Shown piece after piece: positions 40,141 to 55,664 of a DNA stretch of 64,000 bases. The DNA is from Streptosporangiaceae bacterium (GTDB lineage: Bacteria > Actinomycetota > Actinomycetes > Streptosporangiales > Streptosporangiaceae), in the NCBI GenBank assembly GCA_030041195.1, contig JASHOI010000006.1, positions 7,372-71,371 on the forward strand, given 5' to 3'. Position numbers and translations under genes: made by a program. The notes beneath the pieces are model-generated. The model had not been told where the DNA came from. It saw nothing but the letters and a program-made list of their open reading frames with translations, and did not search any database. The first letter of the stretch is position 1; each line of letters opens with the position of its first letter.

Positions 40141-40189
40141 GGCGGAGGGGCCCGCCGTCGACCGCGGATGAGCCGCCAACGGTCCCTGC
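40141..40189 (+). ncRNA. Second-family (crcB-like variant) RNA upstream of MFS gene
   Basis: 5' half GGCGGAGGGGCCCGCC, 3' half GCCAACGGTCCCTGC. Same topology as the fluoride aptamer: loop AGGGGCC pairs with GGUCCCU. CCTGCC is followed by AGGGGCTGGAGG carrying the SD. Confidence 0.75.
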
Positions 40190-40210
40190 CAGGGGCTGGA
40201 GGATGGTCAG

Positions 40211-41425
40211 GTGCCCGAGCCCGGTGGTTCTGGATCCAGCCGGGTGCCGTTGCCTCGGCGAGCGGCCCAAGCGTCCCCAGCTCTCAAGTTTGTGCTGATG
40301 GTCGGCGTCATGAGTTTCTTCGCTGACTTTACCTACGAAGGGTCGCGCTCGGTCATCGGCCCTTACCTGGGCGCGCTCGGCGCCGGGGCGCTGGCGATCA
40401 GCGTGATCAGCGGGCTGGGCGAGTTCCTCGGTTACGGACTGCGCCTGTTCTCTGGGCGCAGCGCCGACCGGACCGGACGGTACTGGCCGATCACGATCGG
40501 CGGTTATGCGGTCCAGATGGCAGCGGTACCGCTGCTCGCGCTGGCCAGGAACTGGCAGCTGGCCGCGCTGCTGATCATCGCCGAGCGGATCGGCAAGGCC
40601 ACCCGAAACCCGCCGCGGGACGCGATGCTGTCGCACGCAGCGCGGGAAATGGGGTACGGCTGGGGCTTTGGCGTACACGAGGCGCTGGATCAGTTCGGCG
40701 CGATGTTCGGCCCCCTGCTCGTCGCGGTGGTCTTGGCGGTGAGCGGGCACGACTACCGGCTGGCGTTCGCGGCCCTCGCGATCCCGGCCGCGATCACGCT
40801 GTCGCTGGTGCTGATCGCACGCAGATTCTTCCCGCGACCGCAGGATCTTGCGGCCGGCCCGGACGGAGTAACCACTGGGGGCCTACCGCGGGTGTTCTGG
40901 GTGTACCTGGCCGCAGCCGCTCTGGCCGCCTCGGGGTTCGCGGACTTCCCGCTGATCGCGTTCCACTGGCAGCAGGCCGCTACCATGCAGCCGCCGCTCA
41001 TCCCTGTGTTCTACGCGGTCGCGATGGCGGTCAGTGGCGTCGGGTCTCTTATCTTCGGGCGCCTATTCGACCGGTCCGGAATCGGGGTGCTGATCCCGCT
41101 GACCGTGGCAACCGCCGGGTATGCACCGCTGGTATTCCTCGGCGGCCTGTGGGCCGGGCTGGCGGGCGTAGCGCTGTGGGGGCTCGGAATGGGAGTTCAG
41201 GAGTCGATCATTCCCGCCGCCGTTGCGCCGATGGTTTCGCCAGACCGCCGGGCGTCCGCGTACGGACTGTTCACCGGCGCCTACGGCACAGCCTGGGTGC
41301 TGGGCAGCATCGTAATTGGCCTGCTGTTCGACACCTCGCTCGGTGCGGTCACCGCTTTCGCCGTGGCCGCTCAACTCGCGGCGATCCCATTCCTCCTGAT
41401 CGTCCGCTCGCGCACGACAGCCTAG
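40211..41425 (+). CDS. MFS transporter
   Basis: 404 aa, GTG start after CTGGAGGATGG. Twelve hydrophobic helices with the MFS loop motif GRSADRTGRYWP between helices 2 and 3, and a second LIFGRLFDRSG between helices 8 and 9. The motif ERIGKATRNPPRDAMLSHA in the first half is typical of one actinobacterial MFS subgroup with no known substrate. Its leader holds the second-family RNA, so its substrate may hint at that RNA's ligand. Its TAG stop overlaps the convergent Nudix stop in one CTAG. Confidence 0.85.
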   Translation: MPEPGGSGSSRVPLPRRAAQASPALKFVLMVGVMSFFADFTYEGSRSVIGPYLGALGAGALAISVISGLGEFLGYGLRLFSGRSADRTGRYWPITIGGYAVQMAAVPLLALARNWQLAALLIIAERIGKATRNPPRDAMLSHAAREMGYGWGFGVHEALDQFGAMFGPLLVAVVLAVSGHDYRLAFAALAIPAAITLSLVLIARRFFPRPQDLAAGPDGVTTGGLPRVFWVYLAAAALAASGFADFPLIAFHWQQAATMQPPLIPVFYAVAMAVSGVGSLIFGRLFDRSGIGVLIPLTVATAGYAPLVFLGGLWAGLAGVALWGLGMGVQESIIPAAVAPMVSPDRRASAYGLFTGAYGTAWVLGSIVIGLLFDTSLGAVTAFAVAAQLAAIPFLLIVRSRTTA

Positions 41426-41886
41426 GGCTCGCGCGCCGGCCGCCAAAGGTTGGCCAGGTAAGGGGCGTACAGTTCGCGGTGGCGGTCGAGCATCGCGCGC
41501 AGGTGGCCGGCCACGGGTGGCCGCAGGTCCAGCTCCTGTATCCGGTCAACCGGGACGAACACTGGCGCCAGGCCCTTCTCGAGCTGCTCAGGCATCTGGT
41601 CCGGTGCCGGATCGGCAGCCAAGAATACGATGTCGACGGTGCGCGGGCCGGAGTCCGGACCGCTGGCTTCCAGTACGTACGCCACCCTGTCGGGGTTGAC
41701 GTAAAGACCGGTCTCCTCGCGCACCTCACGGCGTGCGCACGCCGCCATACTCTCGCCGGGCCGGGGAGTGCCGCCGGGCAGTACCCAGTCGCCAGCACCG
41801 CTGCCAACACGATGCACCAGCAGAACCGTTCGCTTGCGGAGGACAATGGCCGAGCAGCGCAGCTCTACGCCGTCAGGCATGTTCAT
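41422..41886 (-). CDS. Nudix hydrolase
   Basis: 154 aa, ATG 41886 with AAGGAG six bases upstream (a longer frame upstream lacks an SD). Nudix box GTPRPGESMAACARREVREE followed by TG is complete. Short N-terminal strand MNMPDGVELRCSAIVL. Substrate unknown. Convergent with the MFS gene and just downstream of PAP2. Confidence 0.87.
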   Translation of the reverse strand: MNMPDGVELRCSAIVLRKRTVLLVHRVGSGAGDWVLPGGTPRPGESMAACARREVREETGLYVNPDRVAYVLEASGPDSGPRTVDIVFLAADPAPDQMPEQLEKGLAPVFVPVDRIQELDLRPPVAGHLRAMLDRHRELYAPYLANLWRPAREP

Positions 41887-41914
41887 GCAACTCCTTAGGT
41901 ATCTGCCGGTCCGG

Positions 41915-42625
41915 CTATGCCCGGCCGGACTTCGCTGGTGCCGCCGAGGCGACGTCCGCGAGCTGCAGCCAGCCTTCGGCAAACAGCCACGCGGACAGTA
42001 CGTCACTGGGCCAGTGCACGCCGAGATAAATCCTGCTCGAGCCCACGCATACGGCAACGAGAAGCGGAACGCCGTGCCTGCCTAGGCCGCTGGTTGTACA
42101 TCTAACGCAAGCTCCTGCCGTCAGGACCGCCAGCGACGTGTGCTTCGAAGGCATGCTGAATCCCTCGGGCTCGGTCAGCCATATCGCGTCAGGCGGCCGG
42201 GGCCGGGCAATCGCCCGGGACAGGATGCGGCGGACGACCGCTCCGGTGACCACCGCAAGGCCCGGCACGCACGCCTGCTGCCAGCTGCCCCGCCGCATCG
42301 CCATGGCGGTGGCGGCGGCTATGGAGATGGCCACGAAACGTGGCTCACCGAGCGAGCTGACCGTCCGGGCGGTTCGCACCGCGGCCGGGTTGCGCCCATT
42401 CTCGGCCAGCCTGATCACTGCCTGGTCGAGCCTGCCGATCAGGCCGTGTCCCGGCCGGGCGACGATCGCGGCGAGGCCGGCGAACGCTAGCGCGCTTCCG
42501 CAGGCGTGCCTAACCACCGTGCGCTCGAGTCCGGCCACAGCCCCGCTCCTCTCGGCTAGCCAGCAGGACCCATTGGCCACCGGGGCAATGCGCACGCGCC
42601 AATGCGCGGCTTCGGCGGGATCCAT
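41915..42625 (-). CDS. PAP2-type membrane phosphatase
   Basis: 236 aa; the start is uncertain because no clear SD precedes ATG 42625. The three PAP2 motifs are present: SRAIARPRPP, MPSKHTSLA (PSxH) and GSSRIYLGVHWPSDV (SRxxxxxHxxxD). About five membrane helices. Such enzymes dephosphorylate lipid phosphates or undecaprenyl pyrophosphate at the membrane. Divergent from the four-HTH gene. Confidence 0.85.
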   Translation of the reverse strand: MDPAEAAHWRVRIAPVANGSCWLAERSGAVAGLERTVVRHACGSALAFAGLAAIVARPGHGLIGRLDQAVIRLAENGRNPAAVRTARTVSSLGEPRFVAISIAAATAMAMRRGSWQQACVPGLAVVTGAVVRRILSRAIARPRPPDAIWLTEPEGFSMPSKHTSLAVLTAGACVRCTTSGLGRHGVPLLVAVCVGSSRIYLGVHWPSDVLSAWLFAEGWLQLADVASAAPAKSGRA

Positions 42626-42828
42626 CGCCGAGTGGGCTCGCCACTGCGATCATGATAGGCGAGGCCCGTCTCAGGCCGCACGCCCCGGTAGGTGGTGTCT
42701 GATGTTACGCGCCTACGCCCTGATCGATGACCACCTGAGCTGTACGCATCCCGCCTGCGCTGGCAGCCGCCGACCCGCCCGCCGGCCTTGCGAGGTTGGA
42801 TTATCCGCTCGGCTACGCTATGAGCAAC

Positions 42829-42888
42829 GGCGGAGGGGCCCGCCGTAGACTGCGGAGACGCCGCCAACGGTCCCTGCCAGCAGGCAGG
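42829..42888 (+). ncRNA. Second-family RNA upstream of four-HTH gene
   Basis: 5' half GGCGGAGGGGCCCGCC (42829-42844), 3' half GCCAACGGTCCCTGC (ends 42877). CCTGCC forms a perfect hairpin with GGCAGG (42883-42888), which overlaps the SD AGGAGG. Confidence 0.78.
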
Positions 42889-42899
42889 AGGTTAGTGGC

Positions 42900-43820
42900 G
42901 TGCGCCCGAGCCACGACGCGGGCTGCTGCCCGTATGCATGGGGACCGGTTGATTCACCGGGTTCGACGCGTGACCACCCAACCGGGACCGTACCGGTCGA
43001 GACGGCAGCGCTGATCAGCCATCTCTATGACTGCCAGGGGCTCTCAACATATGAGATCGCGAAGCGCGTTGGACTCAGCCGGCAACGCGTCGGGCGATTG
43101 CTGAACAAGGCTGGGGTCGCGGTCAAACCACGTGGCGCGGGCCGACAGCGAAAGCCTGACCCGCAGCAAGCCGCACTTACCGACCTCGCCGTCCGTCTCT
43201 ACGAGAACTCGAATCTGTCGTCGCGTGAGATTTCGGTGCTTACCGGAATGCCAGAGCGGACGGTTAGAGACCGGCTGCGCGATCGGGGCGTACGCATGCG
43301 CACGCGAGGACGGGCCAACAGGGAGGACCGGGCAGCGGCGCCTGCGGAGGCGCTCGTTGAGCTGTACATCCGAGCAGGGCTGAGTGCGGCAGAGGCAGGC
43401 CGACGATTGGGGGTACCCGGCAGGGTGGTCCTCCGTACCGCGCACGATCAGGGCCTGCCGGTGCGCATCGGCGGGCCAGAGCCACGTCACGGACCCAGCG
43501 AGATAGAGCTGATCGATGCGCTGTATGCCGATCCGATGGTGCGGCAGATACTTTCCAAGAACGGGATCCTCCCCCGGCCGGCCGGAGGCCCGATCTGGCA
43601 GCGTTTTCCGGTGCCCGTATATATAAGCCCGGAGCTGGCGAGAGAACTGTACGTACCCTGTGGGCTAGGCCTGCGGCACATCGAGCTCATAACCGGCCAG
43701 CCGGCTGAGACCGTCCGAGATCTCCTGCGTGCGCAAGGAATCTCATTGCGGCAACAGGGCGGCAGATCACCGTTCATGCGAAGATGGCGGAGCGCAAATC
43801 GTGGCGCTCAACAGGCCTGA
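42900..43820 (+). CDS. Protein with four tandem helix-turn-helix repeats
   Basis: 306 aa, GTG after AGGAGG. Four similar HTH units at about residues 42-72 (GLSTYEIAKRVGLSRQRVG), 100-130 (NLSSREISVLTGMPERTVR), 155-187 (GLSAAEAGRRLGVPGRVVL) and 250-282 (GLGLRHIELITGQPAETVR), each preceded by LY. No sensor or enzyme domain recognised. It could bind a long repeated DNA site and is the only plausible dedicated regulator inside the fluoride locus. Under a second-family RNA. Confidence 0.75.
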   Translation: MRPSHDAGCCPYAWGPVDSPGSTRDHPTGTVPVETAALISHLYDCQGLSTYEIAKRVGLSRQRVGRLLNKAGVAVKPRGAGRQRKPDPQQAALTDLAVRLYENSNLSSREISVLTGMPERTVRDRLRDRGVRMRTRGRANREDRAAAPAEALVELYIRAGLSAAEAGRRLGVPGRVVLRTAHDQGLPVRIGGPEPRHGPSEIELIDALYADPMVRQILSKNGILPRPAGGPIWQRFPVPVYISPELARELYVPCGLGLRHIELITGQPAETVRDLLRAQGISLRQQGGRSPFMRRWRSANRGAQQA

Positions 43821-43927
43821 CCTTTCCGCCTGGAGGCTTGCAGAAGATACGCAGCAATGGCTCGCGCTCGGGAGTCGCACAGCCCGCCGGCCACGTCTGC
43901 AGCCAGGAACAGGTACTGTTGACGGTA

Positions 43928-43984
43928 GGCGGAGGGGCTCGCCGCAAACGCGCCAAGGCCAACGGTCCCTGTGTGGCGAACAGG
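43928..43984 (+). ncRNA. Second-family RNA upstream of ABC-F remnant
   Basis: 5' half GGCGGAGGGGCTCGCC, 3' half GGCCAACGGTCCCTGT. CCTGT pairs with ACAGG (43980-43984), which carries the SD-like AGGA. The C-U change in the loop keeps pairing by G-U. Confidence 0.75.
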
Positions 43985-43995
43985 ATGCGTGCGGC

Positions 43996-44295
43996 ATGAA
44001 CCAGATCATCGCGGTCAATCACGCCCGGAAGTCTTTCGATGGCAGGGTCGCCCTTGACGATGTGACGCTTGCCTTCCTGCCCAGCGCGAAGATTGGCGCT
44101 GCCGGGCCCAATGGCACCGGCAAGTCGACGTTGCCGCGGATGATGGCCGGCCGGGCCGCGCTCACGTGCCTGGCCAGCACACGCGGGCTGCGGTGGGCGC
44201 CTCTGGACCCGAGATCTGGCGTCATCCAGCTGGTCACTTACGATGGCGAGCACCTCGGCCACGTCCGCCGAGACAGCGCCTGCGCCACAGGCTAA
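43996..44295 (+). pseudogene. ABC-F (EttA-like) N-terminal remnant
   Basis: 99 codons. The first 60 residues align in order with the start of EttA-type ABC-F ATPases (KSFDGRVALDDVTLAFLPSAKIGAAGPNGTGKSTL, quoted in two pieces: KSFDGRVALDDVTLAF and GPNGTGKST), including Walker A. After RMMAGRAAL the reading frame loses resemblance and stops; there is no signature motif, Walker B or second ATPase domain (complete proteins are about 550 aa). Either a decayed gene whose riboswitch remains, or a short reused peptide. ABC-F proteins act on the ribosome. Confidence 0.7.
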
Positions 44296-44341
44296 GGATC
44301 AGCAGAACGCCGCCCTGAGGAGCGGCCGTTCACAGGGTCCA

Positions 44342-44434
44342 CGCGATGAGGCTCGCGCAGCACCTGGATCCATATCCGGGCTGATGGCTTCTACCCCTTA
44401 CGGCGTCAGCGACGCCGTTCATGCAGGTGGAGGC
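44342..44434 (+). ncRNA. Fluoride (crcB) riboswitch of DUF3040/GTPase operon
   Basis: 5' half CGCGATGAGGCTCGCG, 3' half GGCTGATGGCTTCTACC (aptamer ends 44394). GCTTCTACC pairs over nine positions with GGTGGAGGC (44426-44434), the SD of ATG 44439, with a strong ACGGCGTC/GACGCCGT hairpin between. Confidence 0.94.
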
Positions 44435-44438
44435 CTCG

Positions 44439-44612
44439 ATGCCCGTTCGATGTCCATGGCAGACGCCGCAGCGTGCTCCCGTTGCTGCCGGCTGCACCGA
44501 TCCTGACGGCGCGTGGAGAGGAGACCGTCGTGTCGCAACATCAGCATCCATCGCCACTGCCGCCCGACCCAGAACCCCGAACGGGCTGCTCACCACTGCC
44601 GCCAGACCCTGA
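44439..44612 (+). CDS. 57-aa leader ORF after riboswitch
   Basis: ATG 44439 with the switch-controlled SD GGTGGAGG. Peptide begins MPVRCPWQTPQRAPVAAGC and resembles no family. It overlaps the next ORF in another frame; translation through it may open that start. Coding support is position and SD only. Confidence 0.35.
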   Translation: MPVRCPWQTPQRAPVAAGCTDPDGAWRGDRRVATSASIATAARPRTPNGLLTTAARP

Positions 44613-44697
44613 GCCGCACGACGGCTGCTCACCATTGCCGCCCGATCCGCATACCCAGCCGTCGACGATCCGCCCTACCGCGGTATCGAACCGATAG
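44530..44697 (+). CDS. 55-aa proline-rich protein with 13-residue repeats
   Basis: GTG 44530 after GAGAGGAG. From residue 9 it has nearly three copies of a 13-residue unit PLPPDPEP(R/H)(T/D)GCS (39-bp DNA repeat, 44554 to about 44660). Stop ten bases before the DUF3040 start. One Cys per unit; the PxxP-like runs could be a binding partner for a larger protein. Not recognised. Confidence 0.5.
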   Translation: MSQHQHPSPLPPDPEPRTGCSPLPPDPEPHDGCSPLPPDPHTQPSTIRPTAVSNR

Positions 44698-44707
44698 AGG
44701 AGCGACG

Positions 44708-45151
44708 ATGAGCCTCAGCGCCCGGGAACAGCGGGCCTTGGACTCGATCCGCGAAGAGCTCGCCAAGTCCGATCGGCAGCTGACAGCAATCCTGGCCGCC
44801 TTCACGCGGCTGGTATCGAACGAGGATATGCCGACTCGCGAGACGATCCACCAGAGCCCGTGGCGTGCCATCGGTGGTTCATGGCGTCGCCGACGAGAGG
44901 GCCCCCGAAGCGCAGCGAACTACTGGGCTCGCCCACCGCGCAGGCGCCTGAGCTTCACGCAGGCCGTTTTGGTGGTGTACCTGCTGATAACTGCCGGACT
45001 GATCGTCGCTGGCGTAGTCCTCGGCCCCGGAACCAGCCACAGTGCATGCCCACCGCTGTTGGCCATGACTTGCGCAAGTCCCGTTTCCGCACACAGTTCA
45101 CGCCCCGCAGTGCATCACAACCAGGCCAGGTCATGGACACGGGGAGGATAG
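44708..45151 (+). CDS. DUF3040 membrane protein
   Basis: 147 aa, ATG after GAGGAG. Starts MSLSAREQRALDSIREELAKSD, the standard opening of actinobacterial DUF3040 proteins, with one membrane helix at about residues 81-105 (FTQAVLVVYLLITAGLIVAG). The C-terminal 45 residues are polar and of low complexity. Function of the family is unknown. Between the Pro-repeat ORF and the GTPase, 17 bases from the latter. Confidence 0.85.
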   Translation: MSLSAREQRALDSIREELAKSDRQLTAILAAFTRLVSNEDMPTRETIHQSPWRAIGGSWRRRREGPRSAANYWARPPRRRLSFTQAVLVVYLLITAGLIVAGVVLGPGTSHSACPPLLAMTCASPVSAHSSRPAVHHNQARSWTRGG

Positions 45152-45168
45152 GAACACGGGGAGGACAG

Positions 45169-47604: not shown

Positions 47605-47667
47605 ATCGGCAAAAGGCAGTCACGGCACGAGGGCGGCAGCTGCCGCCACCAGGGTCTGGTACCTGAC

Positions 47668-47673
47668 TACAAT
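47668..47673 (+). promoter_or_regulatory. -10 box of the enolase riboswitch promoter
   Basis: TACAAT, ten bases before the aptamer stem at 47684. No clear -35 box was seen. Confidence 0.45.
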
Positions 47674-47683
47674 CGGTGTGCAG

Positions 47684-47774
47684 CCGGATGAGGCTCCGGC
47701 TGGAGCGAGCCCGCTCCAGAACTGCCGCCAGGCTAATGGCCTCTGGCAGATCACGATCACGGTGACTGGGAGGC
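47684..47774 (+). ncRNA. Fluoride (crcB) riboswitch of enolase
   Basis: 5' half CCGGATGAGGCTCCGG, inner hairpin TGGAGCG/CGCTCCA, 3' half GGCTAATGGCCTCTGGC (ends 47747). GCCTCT can pair with GGGAGGC (47768-47774), the SD of the following ORF. The position after the core is G rather than C, slightly off consensus. Confidence 0.92.
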
Positions 47775-47778
47775 GGGC

Positions 47779-48090
47779 ATGACCGGGCTGAAGCTCTGCC
47801 TGGCCGCATCGACGGTGGCCTGTCCCGGGACGCGGAGAGCCTGGCACTGGCAGGCGGGCACGAAGCCGACGACACTGCGAGCACCGGTGCCATCTATGAG
47901 AGCGGCGCCTTCGGCGCTGCGCGGGCGCGGCGGCGGCGCTGGGCAAATCACGACGGCCTGGCGGCACCTGGGCCGGGCCCGCCCGTTAACGGGACGGAAG
48001 ACCCTGGCGTCACGCCGACGCTGGTTCAGACAATCAACGCTGGGAGGGCCGCCGCAGTCAGGCGGCTGCGGCCAGACCGGAGGAGCATGA
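47779..48090 (+). CDS. 103-aa ORF between riboswitch and enolase
   Basis: ATG 47779 has the switch-controlled SD GGGAGGCGGG and its stop overlaps the enolase start (ATGA). Its composition (Arg/Pro/Gly-rich, no recognisable motif) looks out of frame; the frame shared with enolase is open from 47766 and reads more like protein but has no start codon. It may serve mainly to couple ribosomes to eno. Confidence 0.4.
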   Translation: MTGLKLCLAASTVACPGTRRAWHWQAGTKPTTLRAPVPSMRAAPSALRGRGGGAGQITTAWRHLGRARPLTGRKTLASRRRWFRQSTLGGPPQSGGCGQTGGA

Positions 48091-49358
48091 TGACGGTTTT
48101 CGATGTCACGGGCCTGTCCGCGCTGGAGATCCTGGACTCGCGGGGACGGCCCACGCTGGCGGTCACGCTGCGGCTGGGTGACGGGAGCACCGCCACCGCC
48201 GGGGTGCCCTCGGGCGCGTCTACGGGGTCACGAGAGGCCGTCGAGTGCCGTGACGGCGACCCTGCCCGGTATGACGGCATGGGGGTGCTGGGAGCCGCCG
48301 AAGCGGTGAACACCGAGATCGCCGGGCTGCTGCGAGGCCGGTCGTGGGCGTCGCTGGCCGAGGCGGATCAGGAAATGATCGGGCTGGACGGCACTGCGAA
48401 CAAGAGCAGGCTGGGTGCGAACGCCATCGTAGGGGTCTCGATGGCACTGGCCCGCGCCCTGGCTAATTCTGCCGGCATCCCGCTGTGGCGATGGCTGAAC
48501 CCGGACGGGGTGACCCCGTCGCTGCCAGTGCCGCACTTCAACGTGCTCAACGGCGGGGTACATGCCCCCAACTCGCTGAACTTCCAGGAGTTCATGATCG
48601 CGCCGCTCGGCGCGCCGTCCATGGCCGAGGCCGTCCGCGCCGGCGCCGAGGTATACGCCGCGTTGCGCCGCGAACTAGCCAGCCGCAGACTGTCGACCGG
48701 GCTCGGCGACGAGGGCGGCTTCGCCCCCGAGATCACGCAGCCCGAAGAGGTGCTCGGCCTGCTGGTGCAGGCCATCGGCGCTGCCGGATACAAGACCGGC
48801 GCCGAGGGTGTTTCAATCGCCCTGGACCCGGCAGCCTCGGAGTTCCGCCAGCCCGACGGCCGCTACAAGGTCGCCAGCGACCTGCTGTCCTCGGCCGAGA
48901 TGATCGACCGGTATGCCGCCATCACCGGCCAGTTCCCTGTACATCTGATCGAGGACGGGCTGGGCGAGGACGACGACGACGGGTGGATCGCGCTGACCGC
49001 TCGCCTCGGCCACGCCACCGAACTGGTCGGCGACGACATCTTCTGCACCAACCCGGCCATCATCAGCCGGGCCATTGCCCGCGGGATCGGCAACTCGTCG
49101 CTTATCAAGCTGAACCAGATCGGCACCGTCACCGAAACCCTGGAATCGATGGCCATCTGCCGACAGGCCGGGTACCGGCAGTTCGTCTCCCACCGCTCCG
49201 GGGAAACCGACGACACCTTCATAGCCGACCTGGCCACCGGAACCGGCTGCGGGCATCTGAAGTCTGGGGCACCCGCCCGCGGCGAGCGCGTCGCCAAATA
49301 CAACCGGCTGATGGAGATCGCCGCCGCCCAGCCCGGTCTGCGCTATGGCATGCCGTAA
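48087..49358 (+). CDS. eno: Enolase
   Basis: 423 aa, ATG 48087 (or 48090) after GGAGGAGC. Converts 2-phosphoglycerate to phosphoenolpyruvate. Active-site features: NGGVHAPNSLNFQEFM, ALDPAASEF, LIEDGLGEDDDDGW, GDDIFCTNP, SLIKLNQIGT (catalytic Lys) and SHRSGETDDTFIADL. Fluoride with magnesium and phosphate inhibits enolase, so induction by fluoride is a known compensation. Probably an extra copy beside the housekeeping gene. Confidence 0.96.
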   Translation: MMTVFDVTGLSALEILDSRGRPTLAVTLRLGDGSTATAGVPSGASTGSREAVECRDGDPARYDGMGVLGAAEAVNTEIAGLLRGRSWASLAEADQEMIGLDGTANKSRLGANAIVGVSMALARALANSAGIPLWRWLNPDGVTPSLPVPHFNVLNGGVHAPNSLNFQEFMIAPLGAPSMAEAVRAGAEVYAALRRELASRRLSTGLGDEGGFAPEITQPEEVLGLLVQAIGAAGYKTGAEGVSIALDPAASEFRQPDGRYKVASDLLSSAEMIDRYAAITGQFPVHLIEDGLGEDDDDGWIALTARLGHATELVGDDIFCTNPAIISRAIARGIGNSSLIKLNQIGTVTETLESMAICRQAGYRQFVSHRSGETDDTFIADLATGTGCGHLKSGAPARGERVAKYNRLMEIAAAQPGLRYGMP

Positions 49359-49500
49359 CCGCAACGAGGCAGCGACGGCTTCCGCCGGCGCCGGCTGCCC
49401 TGTCCACCGCCAGCGCGGAAGAGCAGGACAGCCCAGGCTCAACCGTCATGGCCGCCGGTGAAGCCGCCGTGTCGGCCCGGAACCTCAAAGGGGGCCTCAG

Positions 49501-49785
49501 ATGACCCAGGATTATCTAATCGGGGAGCTGTCGATTCGGCTGGGCCAGCTCCAGGCGAATGCCACGCAGGACACGGAGGCAGAGGTTGCGGCGCTACGGA
49601 GGCAGATCGAGGCCGGGCCACCGCAGGGCCTGAGTGCCGCGGCGCTACAAGCCCTGGCGCTGGGGGACTACTTGTGCTGGCAGTCCCTGTGCCGCGGTGA
49701 CATGGTGGCCTTCTCGCAGCAGGCGGAGACCTTGGCGGAGCTTCGCCTGTTCGGCGTTTGCTCCAGGCTGCTCGCCGACGGCTAG
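49501..49785 (+). CDS. Small helical protein of unknown function
   Basis: 94 aa, ATG 49501 after AAAGGGGG. Predicted mostly helical (LIGELSIRLGQLQANAT, EVAALRRQIEAG) with two Cys in the C-terminal half. Follows enolase by 142 bases in which I see no aptamer; it could share the enolase transcript. Confidence 0.65.
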   Translation: MTQDYLIGELSIRLGQLQANATQDTEAEVAALRRQIEAGPPQGLSAAALQALALGDYLCWQSLCRGDMVAFSQQAETLAELRLFGVCSRLLADG

Positions 49786-49823
49786 CGCAAGGGCCCACAT
49801 CCATGGCTGCCAGTGGTGGCGGA

Positions 49824-50234
49824 ATGCCTGTCGTGAAAGCACTGACCCTGCGGCAGCCTTGGGCGTGGGCAGCAATTTACGGGGGCAAAGACGTCGAAAA
49901 TCGCCGCTGGAGGACTAGGCACCGAGGACCTCTGCTGATCCATGCCGGGATGGACGCCGATCCCGACGGTCCTGCATCGGTGCTCAAGACGATCGCCGAT
50001 CCAGACGTATACGCTCATCCTCGGAGCGCCTGGGATGCGCGCGGGGCCATCATCGGCATGGTTTTTCTCGCCGATATTCTGACCGACTCGCCCAGCCAGT
50101 GGGCTATCCCGAGGTGGTACCACTGGGTCTTTGAGTTCCCCTCGCCGATAGAACCGCCCATCCCGCAACGCGGGCGTCAGGGTCTGTGGAAGCCTTCACC
50201 TGCTGTGATCGAGGCATTGCGGGACATTCTGTGA
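49824..50234 (+). CDS. ASCH-domain protein
   Basis: 136 aa, ATG 49824 (ATG 49803 is an alternative). KALTLRQPWAWAAIYGGKDVENR is the classic ASCH opening, with the later GPLLIHAG, an RNA/nucleotide-binding beta-barrel. Ends with WAIPRWYHWVFEF... Function unknown; some ASCH proteins are amidohydrolases of modified nucleosides. Confidence 0.82.
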   Translation: MPVVKALTLRQPWAWAAIYGGKDVENRRWRTRHRGPLLIHAGMDADPDGPASVLKTIADPDVYAHPRSAWDARGAIIGMVFLADILTDSPSQWAIPRWYHWVFEFPSPIEPPIPQRGRQGLWKPSPAVIEALRDIL

Positions 50235-50279
50235 GGCGACGTTGACCGCGAGCCAGGCTCCTTGCCAAACTAACTGTCT

Positions 50280-50350
50280 GGCGAAGGGGCTCGCCCGGAT
50301 TGCGGCAGACGCCGCTGACGGTCCCTGCATCGTTCATCGATGTAAAGGAC
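50280..50350 (+). ncRNA. Second-family RNA with A6/U38, upstream of small gene
   Basis: 5' half GGCGAAGGGGCTCGCC, 3' half GCTGACGGTCCCTGC. Unlike the other five it has A-U at positions 6-38, making it intermediate with the fluoride aptamer. TGCATCG pairs with CGATGTA and GTCC with GGAC, hiding the SD AAAGGA. Confidence 0.75.
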
Positions 50351-50355
50351 GGTCG

Positions 50356-50628
50356 ATGTCTCATGTGAGCGAGGACGAGGTCCTTCTGCTGTGGCGCTCG
50401 CTGCGGGCGTTCCGGTCGGGCAGGAAGCCAGCGTGCGCGCCACAGGGGCGCCCGCCACGCAGTGCCTGCCCACTTCAGGACACCTGCCCACGCTGGCAGG
50501 GACAGCCCGATGACCAGCTTGCGAGCATGGAGGAAAGTGCCGAGCAGACCGAGCTGAGACGATCAGGCTGGCCGTGTAGCAGGCTGCTGGATTTGCTGTC
50601 ACCGGACCTCACCAGGATAGGCCCATAA
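50356..50628 (+). CDS. 90-aa protein of unknown function with cysteine cluster
   Basis: ATG 50356 after AAAGGAC, controlled by the RNA just upstream. MSHVSEDEVLLLWRSLRAFR is a good helix; then CAPQ..., CPLQDTC give three to four Cys within about 20 residues, possibly metal-binding. Not recognised. Confidence 0.55.
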   Translation: MSHVSEDEVLLLWRSLRAFRSGRKPACAPQGRPPRSACPLQDTCPRWQGQPDDQLASMEESAEQTELRRSGWPCSRLLDLLSPDLTRIGP

Positions 50629-50767
50629 TCTCCACGCAGTGGGGATTCGTGTCGGCGATCGCGAGCGCATCCGCACCGAGCGTGCCGAGATACAGCGGCC
50701 CCGGGAGGGCGCCAGCGCGGGCGAGCCCGGAGGTCGGGCCCGCCCGCGCCGTTCCGCCGACGGTGGC

Positions 50768-51400
50768 CTACTTGACCGGCGGTGGGCCGAACGGAAGGAT
50801 CTTGCGGCCGAAGGTGGACTCGATGATGTCGCCGGCCGCGTGGTACCAGGCCAGCACCGCGAAGAGCAGCACGACAGCGCCGCCTGCCTTGGTCACGTTG
50901 GGCATGTTGTCCCAGGCACCGATTGACAGCAGGACCAGGCCGACGAAGATCAGCCAAATGATCACAGTGAGTACCAGGTCGGTGCGCAGCGAAGCGATCG
51001 CGAGGTAGAAGGTGATCACCGCGAATACGGCCAGGAACAGGCCGGTGGCCGAGGAGAGCTGCGCGGCGGGCACGCTGGTCGCGTAGAGCGTGTCGAACGC
51101 GGCGAGTATCACCCAGAACGGCCCGTAAGTGCCGAACACCGCGCCGCCGAATAGGTTGCCCCGCGAGAACTCCATAATTGCGACGATGATCTGCACCAAA
51201 CCGCCGAAGAAGAACGCCGCAGGCAGCACGATAGGGGTCCCGGCCGCGTTCAGCACGCCGGTCTGGTACATGCCGATCATGAACGATGTGGTGCCGAACG
51301 CCGTCACGGCCCACGGCGCCGGGTTGGCCATTACCGCCGGGGCGGGCGGCGGAGCCGGGGCTGCCTCAGCCTCTTCCCCGATAGCACCTGATGTGGCCAT
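50768..51400 (-). CDS. GPR1/FUN34/YaaH (SatP-type) acetate channel
   Basis: 210 aa, ATG with AGGAGTGATG upstream. Six helices with family motif NPAPWAVTAFGTTSFMIGMY at residues 27-46 and the later GGAVFGTYGPFWVILA. These proteins carry acetate and succinate with protons. Weak-acid anion transport fits a fluoride (HF) stress theme, but no fluoride transport is known for the family. A second-family RNA lies 278 bases upstream on the same strand. Confidence 0.9.
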   Translation of the reverse strand: MATSGAIGEEAEAAPAPPPAPAVMANPAPWAVTAFGTTSFMIGMYQTGVLNAAGTPIVLPAAFFFGGLVQIIVAIMEFSRGNLFGGAVFGTYGPFWVILAAFDTLYATSVPAAQLSSATGLFLAVFAVITFYLAIASLRTDLVLTVIIWLIFVGLVLLSIGAWDNMPNVTKAGGAVVLLFAVLAWYHAAGDIIESTFGRKILPFGPPPVK

Positions 51401-51677
51401 TGGGCATCACTCCTGTCCTGTCTCCGGCCGGCCGGGGTGGCCGGCGGGGTCCGCGGTGAACAGCGCTGCTGTGGTGTGGTGCGGGGATGCTGACGGGCGC
51501 GTAAACCCGCACGATCATGGCCGACCGGCCGGTGAGCAGCTTGACGCTGGCGCCCGTAACTGGGCGCGATACGCCACATGGCGTGGCGGTGGCGGCGTGA
51601 CGTGCCGCCGACGGGGATACTGGCCGTGGCGAGATCACGGTCCAACATGGGGCACGCAGCCTCCTGTCCCGCGCTGG

Positions 51678-51724
51678 GCAGGGACCGTTGGCGGCGACCG
51701 CACTTAACGGCGAGCCCCTCCGCC
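51678..51724 (-). ncRNA. Second-family RNA upstream of SatP-type gene
   Basis: 5' half GGCGGAGGGGCTCGCC (51709-51724), 3' half GCCAACGGTCCCTGC (ends 51678). GTCCC can pair with GGGAC just downstream. The next SD (ACAGGAGG) leads to short frames, not directly to satP, so the controlled start is unclear. Confidence 0.75.
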
Positions 51725-51737
51725 GTCTCTGCTTCTG

Positions 51738-51765
51738 ATCGTAGATCCGGCTTTGCGTCCGGTAA
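51738..51765 (-). promoter_or_regulatory. Promoter of the 51.7 kb RNA
   Basis: -35 TTACCG (51760-51765) and -10 TACGAT (51738-51743), 16-base spacing, about 14 bases before the aptamer. Confidence 0.45.
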
Positions 51766-52263
51766 AGCGTGTGTCCCCTGAAGCCGCGCGTGGCGGTTGT
51801 TGCCAGCCGGGCGCGCCTCCCCGGTGCTGTCACAGTGGGAGGACCCGCCGGGCGACGGTGACGCGGCGCTCGATCCGGTCCTGCTGGCAACTCGCCACGC
51901 CGCTTCTGCTGCTGAGGGCTACCTTTCAGGCTCCGTCGCCCGGTAGACGCACGCGCTGAAGTCGTCGAGTGCTTCCTGGCACTTGGCCAGCGCGGCCGCG
52001 GCCGGCTCCGCCTGGGCGGAGCCGAAACCATCCACCGCCCGGACTTTCTTGTGCCCTCTTGCCAGTCTTTCAGGTTCTTTGCCGCATTGGTTCAGCTCGG
52101 CCAGGGTGCAGCGGCCCGCGATCGCCTCGGCCCGAGTCTGGCCATGGCCGCGGCGCGAGTCAAGCAGGGTGTGTTCGCGCGCGCCGGGACGACGGGATGA
52201 CCCGTGGTGAACATTCCGGATAATCGGAGAGAGAGCCGCTGCCGACCGAGGAGTCCTCCCGCG
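51766..52263. other. Stretch without a clear gene; possible coding remnant
   Basis: On the minus strand a frame from about 52190 to the stop at 51919 reads like protein (GRCTLAELNQCGKEPERLARG..., CQEALDDFSACVYRATEPER, four spaced Cys) but has no start codon, so it may be the end of a decayed gene. The rest holds the promoters of the 51.7 kb RNA and of the hydrolase. Confidence 0.35.
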
Positions 52264-53922
52264 ATGACGATAGCCAGCCGTTTCTTCGAGCGGACGATGA
52301 AGCTGCCACCCGCGTCACACCGTGACGTGCAGGTCGAGCGCGACCTGAAGATTCCCATGCCCGACGGGGTGCACCTGCTCGCCGACCGCTACCTGCCACG
52401 CGGGGACGGGCGGCCGCCGCTCGTGCTGGTCCGCTCGCCGTACGGGCGGCGGAGCATCTGGGGGATCCTGTTCGGCCGGGTGCTGGCCGAGCGGGGCTTC
52501 CAGGTGGTCATCCAGAGCTGCCGCGGAACGTTCGGCTCGGGCGGTACCTTCGACCCGTTCGGCCCCGATGAGCACGACGACGGCCTGGCCACGGTCGCGT
52601 GGCTGCGCGCACAGCCGTGGTACCCGGGTTCGTTCGCGACGACCGGGCCGAGCTACCTGGGCATGGTTCAATGGGCGATCGCCGCCGACGCAGGGCCCGA
52701 ACTGAAGGCGATGTGCCCGCAGGTGACGACCTCCGACTTCCGGGCTCCGTTCTACGGGGGCGAGGCGTTCTCCCTCCAGACGGCGCTGACCTGGGTCAAC
52801 CAGGTCGCGGGCCAGGAACGGCGATTCGCGTTCGCCCGCCAGTCTCGGGAGGACCACCGGCTCCGGCCGCTGTTCGACCGGCTGCCGCTGGGCGATCTCG
52901 ACCGGCTCGCCACCGGCGGCCACGTCGCGTACTACCAGGACTGGCTGGCCCACAGCGACCCGGGGGACGACTACTGGAAGGGCCGCCGGTTCAGCGACAC
53001 CCTGGACCGGGTGGCCGCCCCGGTCAGCATGGTCAGCGGCTGGAACGACTTCTTGCTGCCGTACCAGCTGCGTGACTACGCCGCGCTGCGCAGCGCCGGG
53101 CACGAGCCCTACCTGACCATCGGCCCGTGGCGGCACGCCGACCAGGAGGCGGTCGGCACCTGGGCCAGGGATTCGGTGGCCTGGCTGCGGGCTCATCTGC
53201 TCGGCGACCGGAGCCTCCTGCGGCCGGACCCGGTCCGGATCTTCGTCACCGGCGCGGACGAATGGCGCGACCTGCCGGCGTGGCCGCCCGCCACCCGGCC
53301 GCAGCGCTGGCATCTTCAGCCAGACGGCGCGCTCGGCACCACGCCGCCGACCGCGAGCGAACCCGATCGCTACAGCTACCACCCGGGCGACCCCACGCCG
53401 AGCCTGGGCGGGCCGGTCGGCCTGCAGGGCACGGCGCGGATGGACAACCGCATGCTCGAGGCCCGCCCCGACGTGCTGACCTACACCAGCACGCCGCTGC
53501 CGGACGACCTCGAGGTGTTCGGCGAGGTCACGGCCGACCTGTTCGTGCGCTCCAGCCTCGAGCACACCGACTTCTTCGCCCGGCTGTGCGACGTCGGCCC
53601 GAGCGGCGCGTCGATCAACATCTGTGACGCCCTGCTCCGGCTGGCGCCGGGCCGGCCGGCCCCCGAGCCGGACGGCGCGATCCGGGTGCGGTTCGTGCTC
53701 TGGCCCGCCGCGCACCGCTTCCGCCGCGGGCACCGGCTCCGGCTCCAGGTCTCCAGCGGCGCGCACCCCAGGTATGCGCGCAACCCCGGCAGCGGCGAGC
53801 CGCTCGCGACAGCGACCACGCTGGTCGCCGCGGACCAGCAGGTCCATCACGATCCCGAGCATCCGTCAGCGGTCATCCTGCCCGTCGCCAGCACCGTCCA
53901 GCCTGGCCAGGACCGCTCGTAG
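52264..53922 (+). CDS. CocE/NonD-family alpha/beta hydrolase
   Basis: 552 aa, ATG 52264 with GAGGAG upstream. N-terminal hydrolase domain: oxyanion region LVRSPYGRRS, SCRGTFGSGG, nucleophile elbow GPSYLGMVQ (Ser near residue 141). C-terminal jelly-roll domain of the X-Pro dipeptidyl-peptidase/CocE type (from residue 380; LRLQVSSGAHPRYARNPG). Acts on esters or acyl-peptides; substrate unknown. Convergent with the GTPase, overlapping it by 57 bases. Confidence 0.88.
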   Translation: MTIASRFFERTMKLPPASHRDVQVERDLKIPMPDGVHLLADRYLPRGDGRPPLVLVRSPYGRRSIWGILFGRVLAERGFQVVIQSCRGTFGSGGTFDPFGPDEHDDGLATVAWLRAQPWYPGSFATTGPSYLGMVQWAIAADAGPELKAMCPQVTTSDFRAPFYGGEAFSLQTALTWVNQVAGQERRFAFARQSREDHRLRPLFDRLPLGDLDRLATGGHVAYYQDWLAHSDPGDDYWKGRRFSDTLDRVAAPVSMVSGWNDFLLPYQLRDYAALRSAGHEPYLTIGPWRHADQEAVGTWARDSVAWLRAHLLGDRSLLRPDPVRIFVTGADEWRDLPAWPPATRPQRWHLQPDGALGTTPPTASEPDRYSYHPGDPTPSLGGPVGLQGTARMDNRMLEARPDVLTYTSTPLPDDLEVFGEVTADLFVRSSLEHTDFFARLCDVGPSGASINICDALLRLAPGRPAPEPDGAIRVRFVLWPAAHRFRRGHRLRLQVSSGAHPRYARNPGSGEPLATATTLVAADQQVHHDPEHPSAVILPVASTVQPGQDRS

Positions 53923-55593
53923 CGCCTGCTCCCGGCCGGCCAGCTCGGCAAGCTTGCCCTCGGCCTGGCCGGCCGTCTGCGCGCGGAGCCCGGCGGCCGT
54001 CCGCAGCGCCCTGTCCAGGCGGTCCGTGCTGCCGGAATAGCGGCGGCCCACGGCCAGGATCAGCTGCCTGGTGGCCTCCGCCAGGCGGTGCTGCAGATCC
54101 CCCCGGGCCCGGCCGATCTGCCGCTCGGCGAGGTCGCCAGCCTCGCCGAGCACGTGGTCCCGGGCCAGCCGCCGCCCGATTTCGCCGGGCACCCTGCGGC
54201 GCACCGCCCCCGCCAGCAGCTCCGCCTGATCGACGTTCTCGCCGACCGAGTAGAAGAACCGCCGGTCCGGCGCCAGCCGGTCCTGCGCGCCCGCCGCGGC
54301 CAGCTCGAGCCCCAGCAGGTCGGCCGCTGCGTCACGAATCGCCTCAATTTCGGCCGTCAGGCCGCGTGTGAGCCGGCCGTCCAGGCTGGCGAGCCCGTCC
54401 TCTAGCTTTTCGCGCTGCGACTGGCGCCACGCCTCGGCACCGCCGACAGCCAGCCGGACCAGCGCGGCCCTGCCCTGCCGCTGGATCTCGCCCGGCGACG
54501 CCGAAGCGAGCTCGCCGGCGAGCAGGCCGCTGATGGTTGTACGCAGCTCAGCGGCGAGCCGTGCGGTCTGCGCTTCAGCGGCCTCGTTCAGCGCGCCGAG
54601 CATCCGCTTGGACTCCGCGGCTGCCAGGTCGGCGGCCACGGTGCCCCGCTCCCGCACCGCAGCGAGCCGGGCGGCGAAGGCCGCGACCCGCCCGGCAGCG
54701 TCCGAGCTGCGCATTTCGGCCGCGCGCCGGGCCAGCGCTATCTCGTCGATCGCCGCACCGGCGATGCGGCGTAGCTGCCCGGCCGCGGATCGCCGCAGGT
54801 CCGCAGTCCGCCCGGTGCCGAGATACGCGGTGAAGTCAGCGAGAAAGCGGGCGAATCCGGTGTCGCCGGCGCCGGACAGCGCGGCCCTGGCCGACACGGG
54901 GTAGAGCTGCACCGGCTGGCCGGTGGCCTCGCGCACCACCCGCTCGGTGAACTCGGCGGCCTCCGCCAGCCCAGCCGCATCGGCGTAGTCCGCCTTGTTC
55001 AGCACGATGAATGTGGTCACCGAGAGCTCGTGGACGCGGCCGAGCAGGTCGCGCTCGGTCGCCGAGACCGGCGGGTCGGCAGTAAGCACGAAGATCGCGG
55101 CATCCATGGTGGGCAGCGCGCTGTCGGCTGCCGCGGTGTTGTGCGCGTGGACCGAACCGGTTCCCGGCGTGTCGACGATCTCCACGCCCCTGGCCAGGAT
55201 CGGGGCATCCAGGTGGACCGTGATCGCGGCGACGCCGCGCGAGTTCCCGGGATTGCCGCGTTCGGTCCCGAACTCCTCGAGCGCCGGCAGAGGATGACGC
55301 TCGGTCCGGCCGCCGGCGAACGCCACGTCGAGCCGCTCGTCGGTCCCGTGCGTCACCGTGGTCGGCACCGCCGTCAGTGGTGTCACGCCCATCGGCAGGA
55401 CGTCGCGGCCGAGCAGCGCGTTCACCAGCGTGCTCTTGCCCCGCTTCGCCTCCCCCACGACCAGCACCCGCAGCCGGGCGGCGGCGAGCCGGTCGCGCAG
55501 CGCGGCGAGCACGGCCGCGTCGGATTCATCGGCCAGCGGGGTCAGCTCATCGAGCGCCAACGTCAGCGCGTCGGGCAGTTCGGGTGCGCGCAT
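53866..55593 (-). CDS. Dynamin-like GTPase, short form
   Basis: 575 aa, ATG 55593 after TAGGAGGCGGT. G1 GEAKRGKST near residue 47, G3 DTPGTGSVHAHN near 142, G4 LNKADYAD near 192. Helical C-terminal half with many Arg/Glu; no CxxC/CxxH modules, unlike the two longer GTPases, and the start lies directly under a second-family RNA. Confidence 0.87.
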   Translation of the reverse strand: MRAPELPDALTLALDELTPLADESDAAVLAALRDRLAAARLRVLVVGEAKRGKSTLVNALLGRDVLPMGVTPLTAVPTTVTHGTDERLDVAFAGGRTERHPLPALEEFGTERGNPGNSRGVAAITVHLDAPILARGVEIVDTPGTGSVHAHNTAAADSALPTMDAAIFVLTADPPVSATERDLLGRVHELSVTTFIVLNKADYADAAGLAEAAEFTERVVREATGQPVQLYPVSARAALSGAGDTGFARFLADFTAYLGTGRTADLRRSAAGQLRRIAGAAIDEIALARRAAEMRSSDAAGRVAAFAARLAAVRERGTVAADLAAAESKRMLGALNEAAEAQTARLAAELRTTISGLLAGELASASPGEIQRQGRAALVRLAVGGAEAWRQSQREKLEDGLASLDGRLTRGLTAEIEAIRDAAADLLGLELAAAGAQDRLAPDRRFFYSVGENVDQAELLAGAVRRRVPGEIGRRLARDHVLGEAGDLAERQIGRARGDLQHRLAEATRQLILAVGRRYSGSTDRLDRALRTAAGLRAQTAGQAEGKLAELAGREQALRAVLARLDGAGDGQDDR

Positions 55594-55600
55594 ACCGCCT

Positions 55601-55664
55601 CCTACCCTCCTCAGGCAGGGACCGTTGGCGGCAGTGCCGCAGTTGGATGGCGGGCCCCTCCGCC
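55601..55664 (-). ncRNA. Second-family RNA upstream of short GTPase
   Basis: 5' half GGCGGAGGGGCCCGCC, 3' half GCCAACGGTCCCTGCC (ends 55615). CCTGCC pairs with GGTAGG (55601-55606), which overlaps the GTPase SD GGAGG. Confidence 0.78.

What the first reader, a model, noticed from the sequence alone, without database searches (positions are those of the whole stretch)
40141..55664. Second RNA family: covarying relatives of the fluoride aptamer with altered pocket-side bases
Six leaders (40141, 42829, 43928, 50280, 51678-, 55601-) share GGCG(G/A)AGGGGC(C/U)CGCC...GCYRACGGUCCCUG. Relative to the fluoride aptamer, A6-U38 becomes G-C (kept A-U in the 50.3 kb copy), A9-U46 becomes G-C, while U7 becomes A and U41 becomes C. 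Those last two positions lie at the fluoride/Mg site. Either a new subclass with another ligand or weaker fluoride binding. An already named RNA class (for example nhaA- or DUF1646-type) must be excluded.
Basis: partly seen in the sequence, partly recalled or inferred. Interest (0 to 1): 0.93.

Follow-up and report, generated by a model that had tools for sequence, protein, structure and literature searches.

The report
Fluoride riboswitch with altered pocket
Six gene leaders in this stretch of bacterial DNA carry a form of the fluoride-sensing RNA whose pocket letters differ from the textbook ones and which the standard RNA database does not recognise; it is likely still a fluoride sensor, because the same form stands directly in front of predicted fluoride-exporter genes in other actinobacteria.

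Summary
In detail: all six leaders exist, share the stated sequence, and match no Rfam family even at E<=10. They belong to an RNA family spread over Actinobacteria, with a -10 box at the 5' edge in 83 of 101 copies of this pocket type. 'Another ligand' is not supported. The variant pocket (A7, C41, G6-C38) lies directly upstream of crcB, a predicted fluoride exporter, in 20 of 92 copies, and the intermediate pocket (G6-C38, U7, C41) in 97 of 109. In three genomes without any RF01734 match it precedes a Pfam-confirmed CRCB gene. All eight A-U/G-C, A7/U7, C41/U41 combinations occur, and 12 of 20 downstream gene families stand behind both A7 and U7 pockets. nhaA-I and Sodium (DUF1646) RNAs do not match. 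Most likely this is an Rfam-invisible branch of the fluoride riboswitch in which the long-range A6-U38 pair covaries with G-C and the two pocket bases are exchangeable. Fluoride binding is untested; many island copies also have a relaxed J1/3 strand, so a shifted affinity stays open.

The parts
40141..40188 (+). variant aptamer G6-C38/A7/C41 before an MFS transporter gene (40211-41425)
   Evidence: Pfam MFS_1
42829..42876 (+). variant aptamer G6-C38/A7/C41 before a helix-turn-helix/sigma70-region-4-like gene (42900-43820)
   Evidence: Pfam; modelled Shine-Dalgarno release 0.23 to 0.86
43928..43971 (+). variant aptamer G6-C38/A7/C41 before a short frame (43996-44295) similar to the start of an ABC-F-like protein
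   Evidence: ABC_tran 22.4 bits, below its cut-off of 25; similarity to the L006 protein
50280..50327 (+). variant aptamer A6-U38/A7/C41 before a 90-aa frame of unknown function (50356-50625)
   Evidence: no Pfam match; modelled Shine-Dalgarno release 0.25 to 0.64
51679..51724 (-). variant aptamer G6-C38/A7/C41; immediate frame is short (51331-51648), next gene is GPR1/FUN34/YaaH-like (50768-51400)
   Evidence: Pfam
55616..55664 (-). variant aptamer G6-C38/A7/C41 before a dynamin-like GTPase gene (53866-55593)
   Evidence: Pfam Dynamin_N
40030..40077 (-). Rfam-type copy A6-U38/U7/U41, divergent from the 40141 variant, before an NADHdh/Hyf-like gene
   Evidence: Rfam Fluoride 35.4 bits; Pfam
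11571..11617 (+). intermediate copy A6-U38/U7/C41 before a MutS domain V gene
   Evidence: Rfam Fluoride 43.6 bits; Pfam
32231..32281 (-). Rfam-type copy A6-U38/U7/U41 before a universal stress protein gene
   Evidence: Rfam Fluoride 42.4 bits; Pfam
6052..6098 (-). Rfam-type copy A6-U38/U7/U41 upstream of a 250-aa frame without Pfam match
   Evidence: Rfam Fluoride 40.1 bits
4851..4912 (-). Rfam-type copy, missed by my descriptor (one extra base in the P1 loop), upstream of a dynamin-like gene (2237-4648)
   Evidence: Rfam Fluoride 46.5 bits; Pfam
19623..19669 (+). A6-U38/U7/U41 copy before inorganic pyrophosphatase (19699-20202)
   Evidence: Rfam Fluoride 29.2 bits, below gathering; Pfam
47684..47745 (+). 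A6-U38/U7/U41 copy upstream of enolase (48087-49358)
   Evidence: Rfam Fluoride 16.7 bits, far below gathering; Pfam

Best explanation
The six leaders are fluoride-type riboswitch aptamers of an actinobacterial branch that Rfam does not recognise, and they likely still bind fluoride and would switch their genes on when it rises. Shown by calls: the same two hairpins plus pseudoknot, with the long-range 6-38 pair covarying between A-U and G-C; position 7 almost only A or U; position 41 C or U; a -10 box at the 5' edge of most A7 copies; position before genes of the known fluoride regulon, crcB above all. Inferred: fluoride with Mg2+ stabilises the pseudoknot, whose 3' strand otherwise pairs around the ribosome-binding site, so that translation is freed. 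Inferred: A7 and C41 are tolerated because the Mg2+/fluoride cluster is held by backbone phosphates rather than by these bases.
For: Pfam CRCB (PF02537) directly behind A7 variants in L014, L023, L024, L065, L069, L071 and behind U7/G-C variants in L043, L073, L120 (9 of 10 frames tested; the tenth is a 49-aa fragment). crcB behind 20 of 92 G-C/A7/C41 and 97 of 109 G-C/U7/C41 copies; the pattern and model used to find the copies are blind to downstream genes. RF01734 finds nothing at E<=0.001 in 4 of 22 variant-bearing genomes, three of which are those of L014, L023 and L024. 6-38 is G-C or A-U in 301 of 307 copies in a scan that does not ask for it; 9-46 paired in 91 of 92 and 10-45 in 90 of 92 distinct cores. 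All eight combinations of the 6-38, 7 and 41 states exist. 12 of 20 downstream gene families stand behind both A7 and U7 pockets. In 16 of the 18 genomes with an RF01734 match a variant shares its contig with one (13 of them with one over the cut-off). -10 box in 83 of 101 A7 copies against 1 and 0 in control positions. Shine-Dalgarno release above linker-shuffled control.
Against: No binding data. U41A abolishes the response of the B. cereus riboswitch (PMC11077080, passages) and U41 makes hydrogen bonds through its N3-H (PMC8004769, passages, its U38), which C41 lacks. A7 is almost confined to copies with C41 (98 of 101). Away from crcB, G-C/A7/C41 copies often lose the J1/3 end AAC(C/U): 20 of 62 keep it, against 19 of 20 crcB-linked ones; of the window's six by eye only 55616- keeps it. 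72 of 92 G-C/A7/C41 copies are not before crcB (3 of these have under 300 bases downstream). The helix-turn-helix family is seen only behind A7 (11 of 11). Of five window variants modelled, only 42829 and 50280 show clear Shine-Dalgarno release. Well-supported branches of the CrcB tree force only one change of the A7 label.
Confidence: 0.85

Rival explanations
1. A7/C41 aptamers sense fluoride but at a shifted affinity or dynamic range, so that one genome runs two or more fluoride thresholds. This is a refinement of the best explanation, not an exclusive alternative.
For: Both pocket types coexist in one island (window: 6 A7 and 12 U7 copies). Some gene families lean strongly to one pocket: helix-turn-helix 11 of 11 and dynamin-like 19 of 22 behind A7; Hyf/NADHdh 22 of 23, MutS domain V 22 of 22 and Usp 8 of 8 behind U7. 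J1/3 is relaxed in many island copies.
Against: crcB stands behind all main pocket types, 12 of 20 families stand behind both A7 and U7, and the pocket label is clustered on the CrcB tree, which fits inherited drift as well as tuning.
Confidence: 0.3
2. The A7/C41 pocket binds another ligand (another Mg2+-held anion or a cation) and its presence at crcB is secondary.
For: Two bases beside the ion site change together (98 of 101 A7 copies have C41, Fisher p 1.4e-13; only p 0.015 on distinct cores). U41A is non-functional in B. cereus (PMC11077080 passages). Most A7 copies in island loci are not before crcB.
Against: CRCB genes behind A7 copies in three genomes lacking any RF01734 match; enolase, pyrophosphatase, Na+/H+ exchanger and Hyf-like genes behind A7 copies, which a review lists as typical of fluoride riboswitches (PMC11139923 passages); continuous series of intermediates.
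Confidence: 0.07
3. The element is not a riboswitch but a conserved operator or protein-binding leader.
For: It begins right behind a -10 box in 83 of 101 A7 copies, where an operator could also lie.
Against: Positions distant in sequence covary (6-38 in 301 of 307; pseudoknot pairs); P3 varies in sequence while pairing (alignment); the linker appears selected for Shine-Dalgarno release; the fold equals that of a known riboswitch.
Confidence: 0.03

Closest known systems
Fluoride riboswitch (crcB motif, Rfam RF01734)
   Same: P1 hairpin with a six-pair loop pseudoknot, P3 hairpin, long-range 6-38 pair, A40 and U48 (reversed Hoogsteen linchpin in PMC8752731 and PMC11586693, introduction section and passages read), G8-C47, leader position before crcB, enolase, pyrophosphatase, Na+/H+ exchanger and Hyf-like genes.
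   Different: A7 instead of U7, C41 instead of U41, mostly G6-C38 instead of A6-U38, G9-C46, J1/3 often relaxed; no Rfam match for the six at E<=10, and none of 19 relative loci reaches the gathering score at the variant.
Streptomyces-type fluoride aptamer (G6-C38/U7/C41), described here; not found as a named class in the searches made
   Same: Shares G6-C38, C41 and the pseudoknot strand GGUCCC with the six; 97 of 109 copies before crcB. Named example: Streptomyces sp. F8 plasmid pFRL5 before annotated crcB.
   Different: Keeps U7 and, before crcB, the AAC(C/U) end of J1/3 (85 of 95); only 20 of 124 G-C/U7 copies have a -10 box within 5-14 bases.
nhaA-I (RF03057, Li+) and Sodium/DUF1646 (RF03071) RNAs
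   Different: No match to the six; in 10 variant-bearing genomes none over the cut-off, and three weak nhaA-I matches (25.9-28.8 bits, cut-off 37) lie on contigs other than those with strong variant matches.

Membership tests
Fluoride riboswitch RF01734 | P1 hairpin whose loop pairs with the 3' strand (pseudoknot 8-47 to 13-42) | tested here: met
   present in all six; covariation on 92 distinct cores of all pocket types: 91, 90 and 81 paired at 9-46, 10-45, 11-44 against 79.1, 75.8, 64.5 expected. Within the six the pseudoknot hardly varies.
Fluoride riboswitch RF01734 | P3 hairpin ending before position 38 | tested here: met
   alignment A1; in 43928 and its relatives P3 is short. In one search a P3 of three or more pairs was not found in 10 of 72 G-C/A7/C41 copies without crcB.
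Fluoride riboswitch RF01734 | long-range reversed Watson-Crick pair A6-U38 | tested here: met
   pair kept as G-C (214) or A-U (87) in 301 of 307 copies in a scan that leaves it free; A-U in 50280, G-C in the other five. The geometry was not tested.
Fluoride riboswitch RF01734 | A40 and U48, the linchpin pair | tested here: met
   present in all six; the wide scans required them, so their conservation there is built in.
Fluoride riboswitch RF01734 | U7 and U41 beside the Mg2+/fluoride site, conserved in the Rfam consensus | tested here: not met
   A7 and C41 in all six; Rfam consensus shown. C41 also occurs in most U7 copies of this sample (136 of 222).
Fluoride riboswitch RF01734 | score over the Rfam gathering cut-off (34 bits) | tested here: not met
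   no match of the six at E<=10; none of 19 relative loci over the cut-off at the variant.
Fluoride riboswitch RF01734 | leader position before fluoride-resistance genes | tested here: met
   crcB behind 20 of 92 G-C/A7/C41 copies, Pfam-confirmed in six loci. The six window copies themselves are before MFS, helix-turn-helix, ABC-like, 90-aa, YaaH-like and dynamin-like genes; no crcB lies behind them.
Fluoride riboswitch RF01734 | binds fluoride with Mg2+ and discriminates other halides | not testable with these tools
   needs in-line probing, ITC or NMR.
Fluoride riboswitch RF01734 | ON-switch expression platform | tested here: inconclusive
   modelled Shine-Dalgarno release 0.237 against 0.103 with shuffled linkers in 63 A7 copies (Wilcoxon p 1.3e-6), but clear in only 2 of 5 window copies modelled.
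nhaA-I RNA (RF03057) | match to the Rfam model | tested here: not met
   no match in the window; 0 of 10 variant-bearing genomes over the cut-off.
Sodium / DUF1646 RNA (RF03071) | match to the Rfam model | tested here: not met
   no match in the window; 0 of 10 variant-bearing genomes at E<=0.01.

The most novel reading that the evidence does not exclude
Actinobacterial fluoride islands run two pocket chemistries side by side: the A7/C41 pocket rebuilds the Mg2+-fluoride site so that it fires at a different fluoride level, or accepts another Mg2+-held anion, giving one RNA fold a graded response across some 19 leaders in 64 kb.
Probability: 0.25. Interest if true: 0.82.

Novelty: new variant of a known kind. 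Interest (0 to 1): 0.55.

Why it matters
Bases beside the ion site of one of the best-studied riboswitches turn out to be exchangeable in nature, which would tell which parts of the pocket recognise the ion and which are scaffold. The Rfam model misses this branch, so fluoride regulons of Streptomyces and other actinobacteria are likely under-annotated. Two pocket types within one genome make the question of fluoride set-points directly testable.

Tried and rejected
Rejected: membership in nhaA-I or Sodium RNA; chance origin. The exact pattern has no match in viral contigs. Pattern matches with two mismatches at 44245- and 63913- lack the 3' half and are taken as chance; the R1 match at 3158+ (19.1 bits) lacks A40 and is taken as chance.

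Led nowhere: no whole genome is held for the window. A tblastn of plasmids with one CrcB gave 5 records; of the three fetched, pFRL5 holds a G6-C38/U7/C41 copy before annotated crcB and the other two none by the descriptor. PMC3744881, PMC5358364, PMC4140402 and PMC5818262 are not held, so the original structure, variant-class and fluoride-riboswitch papers were not seen. Searches that could have shown a published description of this variant (listings only) showed none; most subscription papers lie outside the library. A review states that S. cattleya uses extensive riboswitch-based fluoride regulation (PMC11139923, passages), so fluoride riboswitches in Streptomyces as such are not new.

Rows dropped before counts: L029 was left out of alignment A1 (39 of 40 copies); duplicate loci L031-L040, L090, L091, L093, L097 and L116 were left out; some hits, mostly the weaker ones, were not fetched; 23 of 158 hits failed the structural filter; 43 of 326 copies got no gene family, where families were assigned by phmmer similarity within 450 bases downstream; one search used 63 of 101 A7 copies (those with a recognisable Shine-Dalgarno and start), and its linker-shuffle control was run for A7 copies only; one search scanned 19 of the 20 loci meant. 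All frequencies come from loci chosen because they hold such RNAs and are not population frequencies.
Full report
Observation. Their 5' halves match GGCGRAGGGGCYCGCC exactly, and with two mismatches allowed the window has 11 matches against 1.77 expected. Compared with the window's own Rfam-recognised fluoride aptamers (five over the gathering score; five more Fluoride matches below it), positions 7 and 41 change from U to A and from U to C, 9-46 becomes G-C, and 6-38 becomes G-C in five copies while 50280 keeps A-U. No Rfam family reaches the six at E<=10; short-window scans of two of them gave no Fluoride match. Position numbers follow the T. petrophila scheme; the pairs A6-U38 and A40-U48 are as printed in PMC11586693 (passages), the rest of the numbering is recalled.

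A family beyond the window. The exact pattern was found in 30 stretches of the collection of 84,980 species' genomes, 29 of them in records labelled with actinobacterial names (Streptosporangiaceae MAGs, Actinomadura, Actinocatenispora, Cellulomonas, Propionicimonas, Streptomyces, Nocardioidaceae, Acidothermales and others) and one in a MAG labelled Acidobacteria. A covariance model R1 from 39 copies matched, at E<=1e-4, 19 of 396 genomes of the phylum, 90 of 200 of the family of a Streptomyces genome, 54 of 150 of the family of a Streptosporangiaceae MAG and 14 of 198 of the order of a Cellulomonas genome. These tallies mix pocket types, and the weakest matches include chance ones.

A continuum, not a class. 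A structural descriptor found 326 distinct copies in 255 sources (1.33 Mb) against 1 in pair-shuffled sequence. In a scan that leaves positions 6, 7, 38, 39 and 41 free, 6-38 is G-C in 214 and A-U in 87 of 307 copies, with 6 others; position 7 is U in 203, A in 102 and other in 2; position 41 is C in 235 and U in 72; the same scan finds 7 in shuffled sequence. Of the 326: A-U/U7/U41 72, A-U/U7/C41 27, G-C/U7/C41 109, G-C/U7/U41 14, A-U/A7/C41 6, G-C/A7/C41 92, G-C/A7/U41 2, A-U/A7/U41 1, others 3. A7 goes with C41 (98 of 101 A7 copies against 136 of 222 U7 copies, Fisher p 1.4e-13; on distinct cores 10 of 13 against 23 of 60, p 0.015), which suggests, without proving it, that C41 came first.

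Gene context says fluoride. Pfam identifies CRCB (PF02537) directly behind A7 variants in L014, L023, L024, L065, L069 and L071 and behind U7/G-C variants in L043, L073 and L120 (9 of 10 frames; the tenth, L021, is a 49-aa fragment at a contig end). With an HMM from eight of these, crcB follows 20 of 92 G-C/A7/C41, 97 of 109 G-C/U7/C41, 4 of 72 A-U/U7/U41 and 3 of 27 A-U/U7/C41 copies, and none of the 23 copies of G-C/U7/U41, A-U/A7/C41, G-C/A7/U41 and A-U/A7/U41. RF01734 finds nothing at E<=0.001 in 4 of 22 variant-bearing genomes; three of these are the genomes of L014, L023 and L024. Other genes behind A7 copies are enolase (L067), Na+/H+ exchangers (L009, L018), an NADHdh/Hyf-like subunit (L029) and pyrophosphatase. 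A review names exporters, Na+/H+ antiporters, pyrophosphatase, enolase and formate hydrogen lyase as typical fluoride-riboswitch genes (PMC11139923, passages). Of 20 gene families assigned, 12 stand behind both A7 and U7 pockets: CrcB, Hyf/NADHdh, dynamin-like, ABC-F, pyrophosphatase, the 90-aa and 94-aa families, enolase, MFS, NUDIX, DUF6062 and YaaH (some by a single copy). On a CrcB tree, parsimony needs 7 changes at position 7 and 3 at position 6, although well-supported branches force only one change of the A7 label.

Anatomy and mechanism. A TANNNT box ends 5-14 bases before the aptamer in 83 of 101 A7 copies (1 and 0 at two control distances), in 40 of 100 A-U/U7 copies (2 and 3) and in 20 of 124 G-C/U7 copies (13 and 2, not significant), so A7 transcripts probably begin at the aptamer. 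Fixing the aptamer in folding calculations raises the unpaired probability of the Shine-Dalgarno site by 0.237 on average, against 0.103 with shuffled linkers (63 A7 copies, 45 above control, Wilcoxon p 1.3e-6; the copies are related, so p is optimistic). U7 classes rise similarly except G-C/U7/U41, which does not (0.30 to 0.30, 13 copies; no shuffle control for U7 classes). In the window five of the six could be modelled: 42829 and 50280 show clear release, 40141, 43928 and 51679- little. The likely mechanism is the known one: fluoride with Mg2+ locks the pseudoknot and frees the ribosome-binding site. In the crystal structure A6-U38 is a reversed Watson-Crick pair and the Mg2+ ions are held by backbone oxygens (PMC11586693, passages), so base exchange at 7 and 41 need not remove the site; from memory, A-U/G-C exchange in a reversed Watson-Crick pair has a precedent in the tRNA 15-48 pair.

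What stands against it. B. cereus U41A does not respond to fluoride (PMC11077080, passages), and U41 uses its N3-H in hydrogen bonds (PMC8004769, passages, where it is numbered U38); but C41 is the state in 97 crcB leaders. Away from crcB, G-C/A7/C41 copies often lose the J1/3 end AAC(C/U) (20 of 62 keep it, crcB-linked 19 of 20; A-U/A7/C41 0 of 5), as do U7/U41 island copies (32 of 61 keep it). The helix-turn-helix family is seen only behind A7 (11 of 11). None of the six window variants is before crcB. A shifted set-point is therefore a live possibility, and binding is untested.

Rfam blindness. In 19 loci with variants, 7 give a Fluoride match at E<=1 and none reaches the gathering score. 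Of 40 Streptomycetaceae genomes chosen because they have an R1 match, 7 have an RF01734 match at E<=0.01 and 1 has one over the cut-off. A named example is Streptomyces sp. F8 plasmid pFRL5, where a G6-C38/U7/C41 copy precedes annotated crcB.

The island. The window holds 18 descriptor copies (12 with U7, 6 with A7) plus the Rfam copy at 4851-, among MutS domain V, dynamin-like, Hyf-like, pyrophosphatase, universal stress protein and enolase genes. In 16 of the 18 genomes with an RF01734 match a variant shares its contig with one, in 13 with one over the cut-off. Fetched stretches of other islands hold up to 8 copies in 16-20 kb (L201, L213).

Verdict. A real, Rfam-invisible variant branch of the fluoride riboswitch; likely still fluoride-responsive; a new variant of a known kind.

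Noticed in passing
window 4851-55664: Some 19 fluoride-type aptamers in one 64-kb stretch, before MutS domain V, dynamin-like, Hyf/NADH-dehydrogenase-like, pyrophosphatase, universal stress protein and enolase genes: an unusually dense fluoride island; similar denser stretches occur in other actinobacterial genomes (L195-L225).
   Followed up: partly
window 18488-18558 (-) and 20355-20422 (+): A further pocket type, G6-C38/U7/U41 with GGCGGTGGATCCCGC; 14 such copies in the fetched set, none before crcB and without modelled Shine-Dalgarno release.
   Followed up: partly
fetched loci, J1/3 strand between P1 and P3: Copies before crcB keep the AAC(C/U) end of J1/3 whatever the pocket type, while many island copies before other genes lose it. 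Unexplained.
   Followed up: partly
window 42900-43820 and relatives in L001, L002, L012, L013, L025, L026: A family of proteins with several helix-turn-helix/sigma70-region-4-like matches, seen only behind the A7 pocket (11 of 11); possibly a transcriptional arm of the regulon.
   Followed up: no
window 50356-50625 and relatives in L001, L007, L011, L025, L096: A conserved 90-aa frame without Pfam match, found behind three different pocket types.
   Followed up: no
window 43996-44295 and 51331-51648: The frames right behind the 43928 and 51679- variants are short compared with relatives behind the same leaders (ABC-F-like in L006, helix-turn-helix-like in L005 and L020), so these window genes may be decayed.
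   Followed up: no
L071:1-55 (-): A SAM-IV riboswitch match (47.4 bits) cut off by the locus end, about 1.4 kb from the fluoride-type variant.
   Followed up: no
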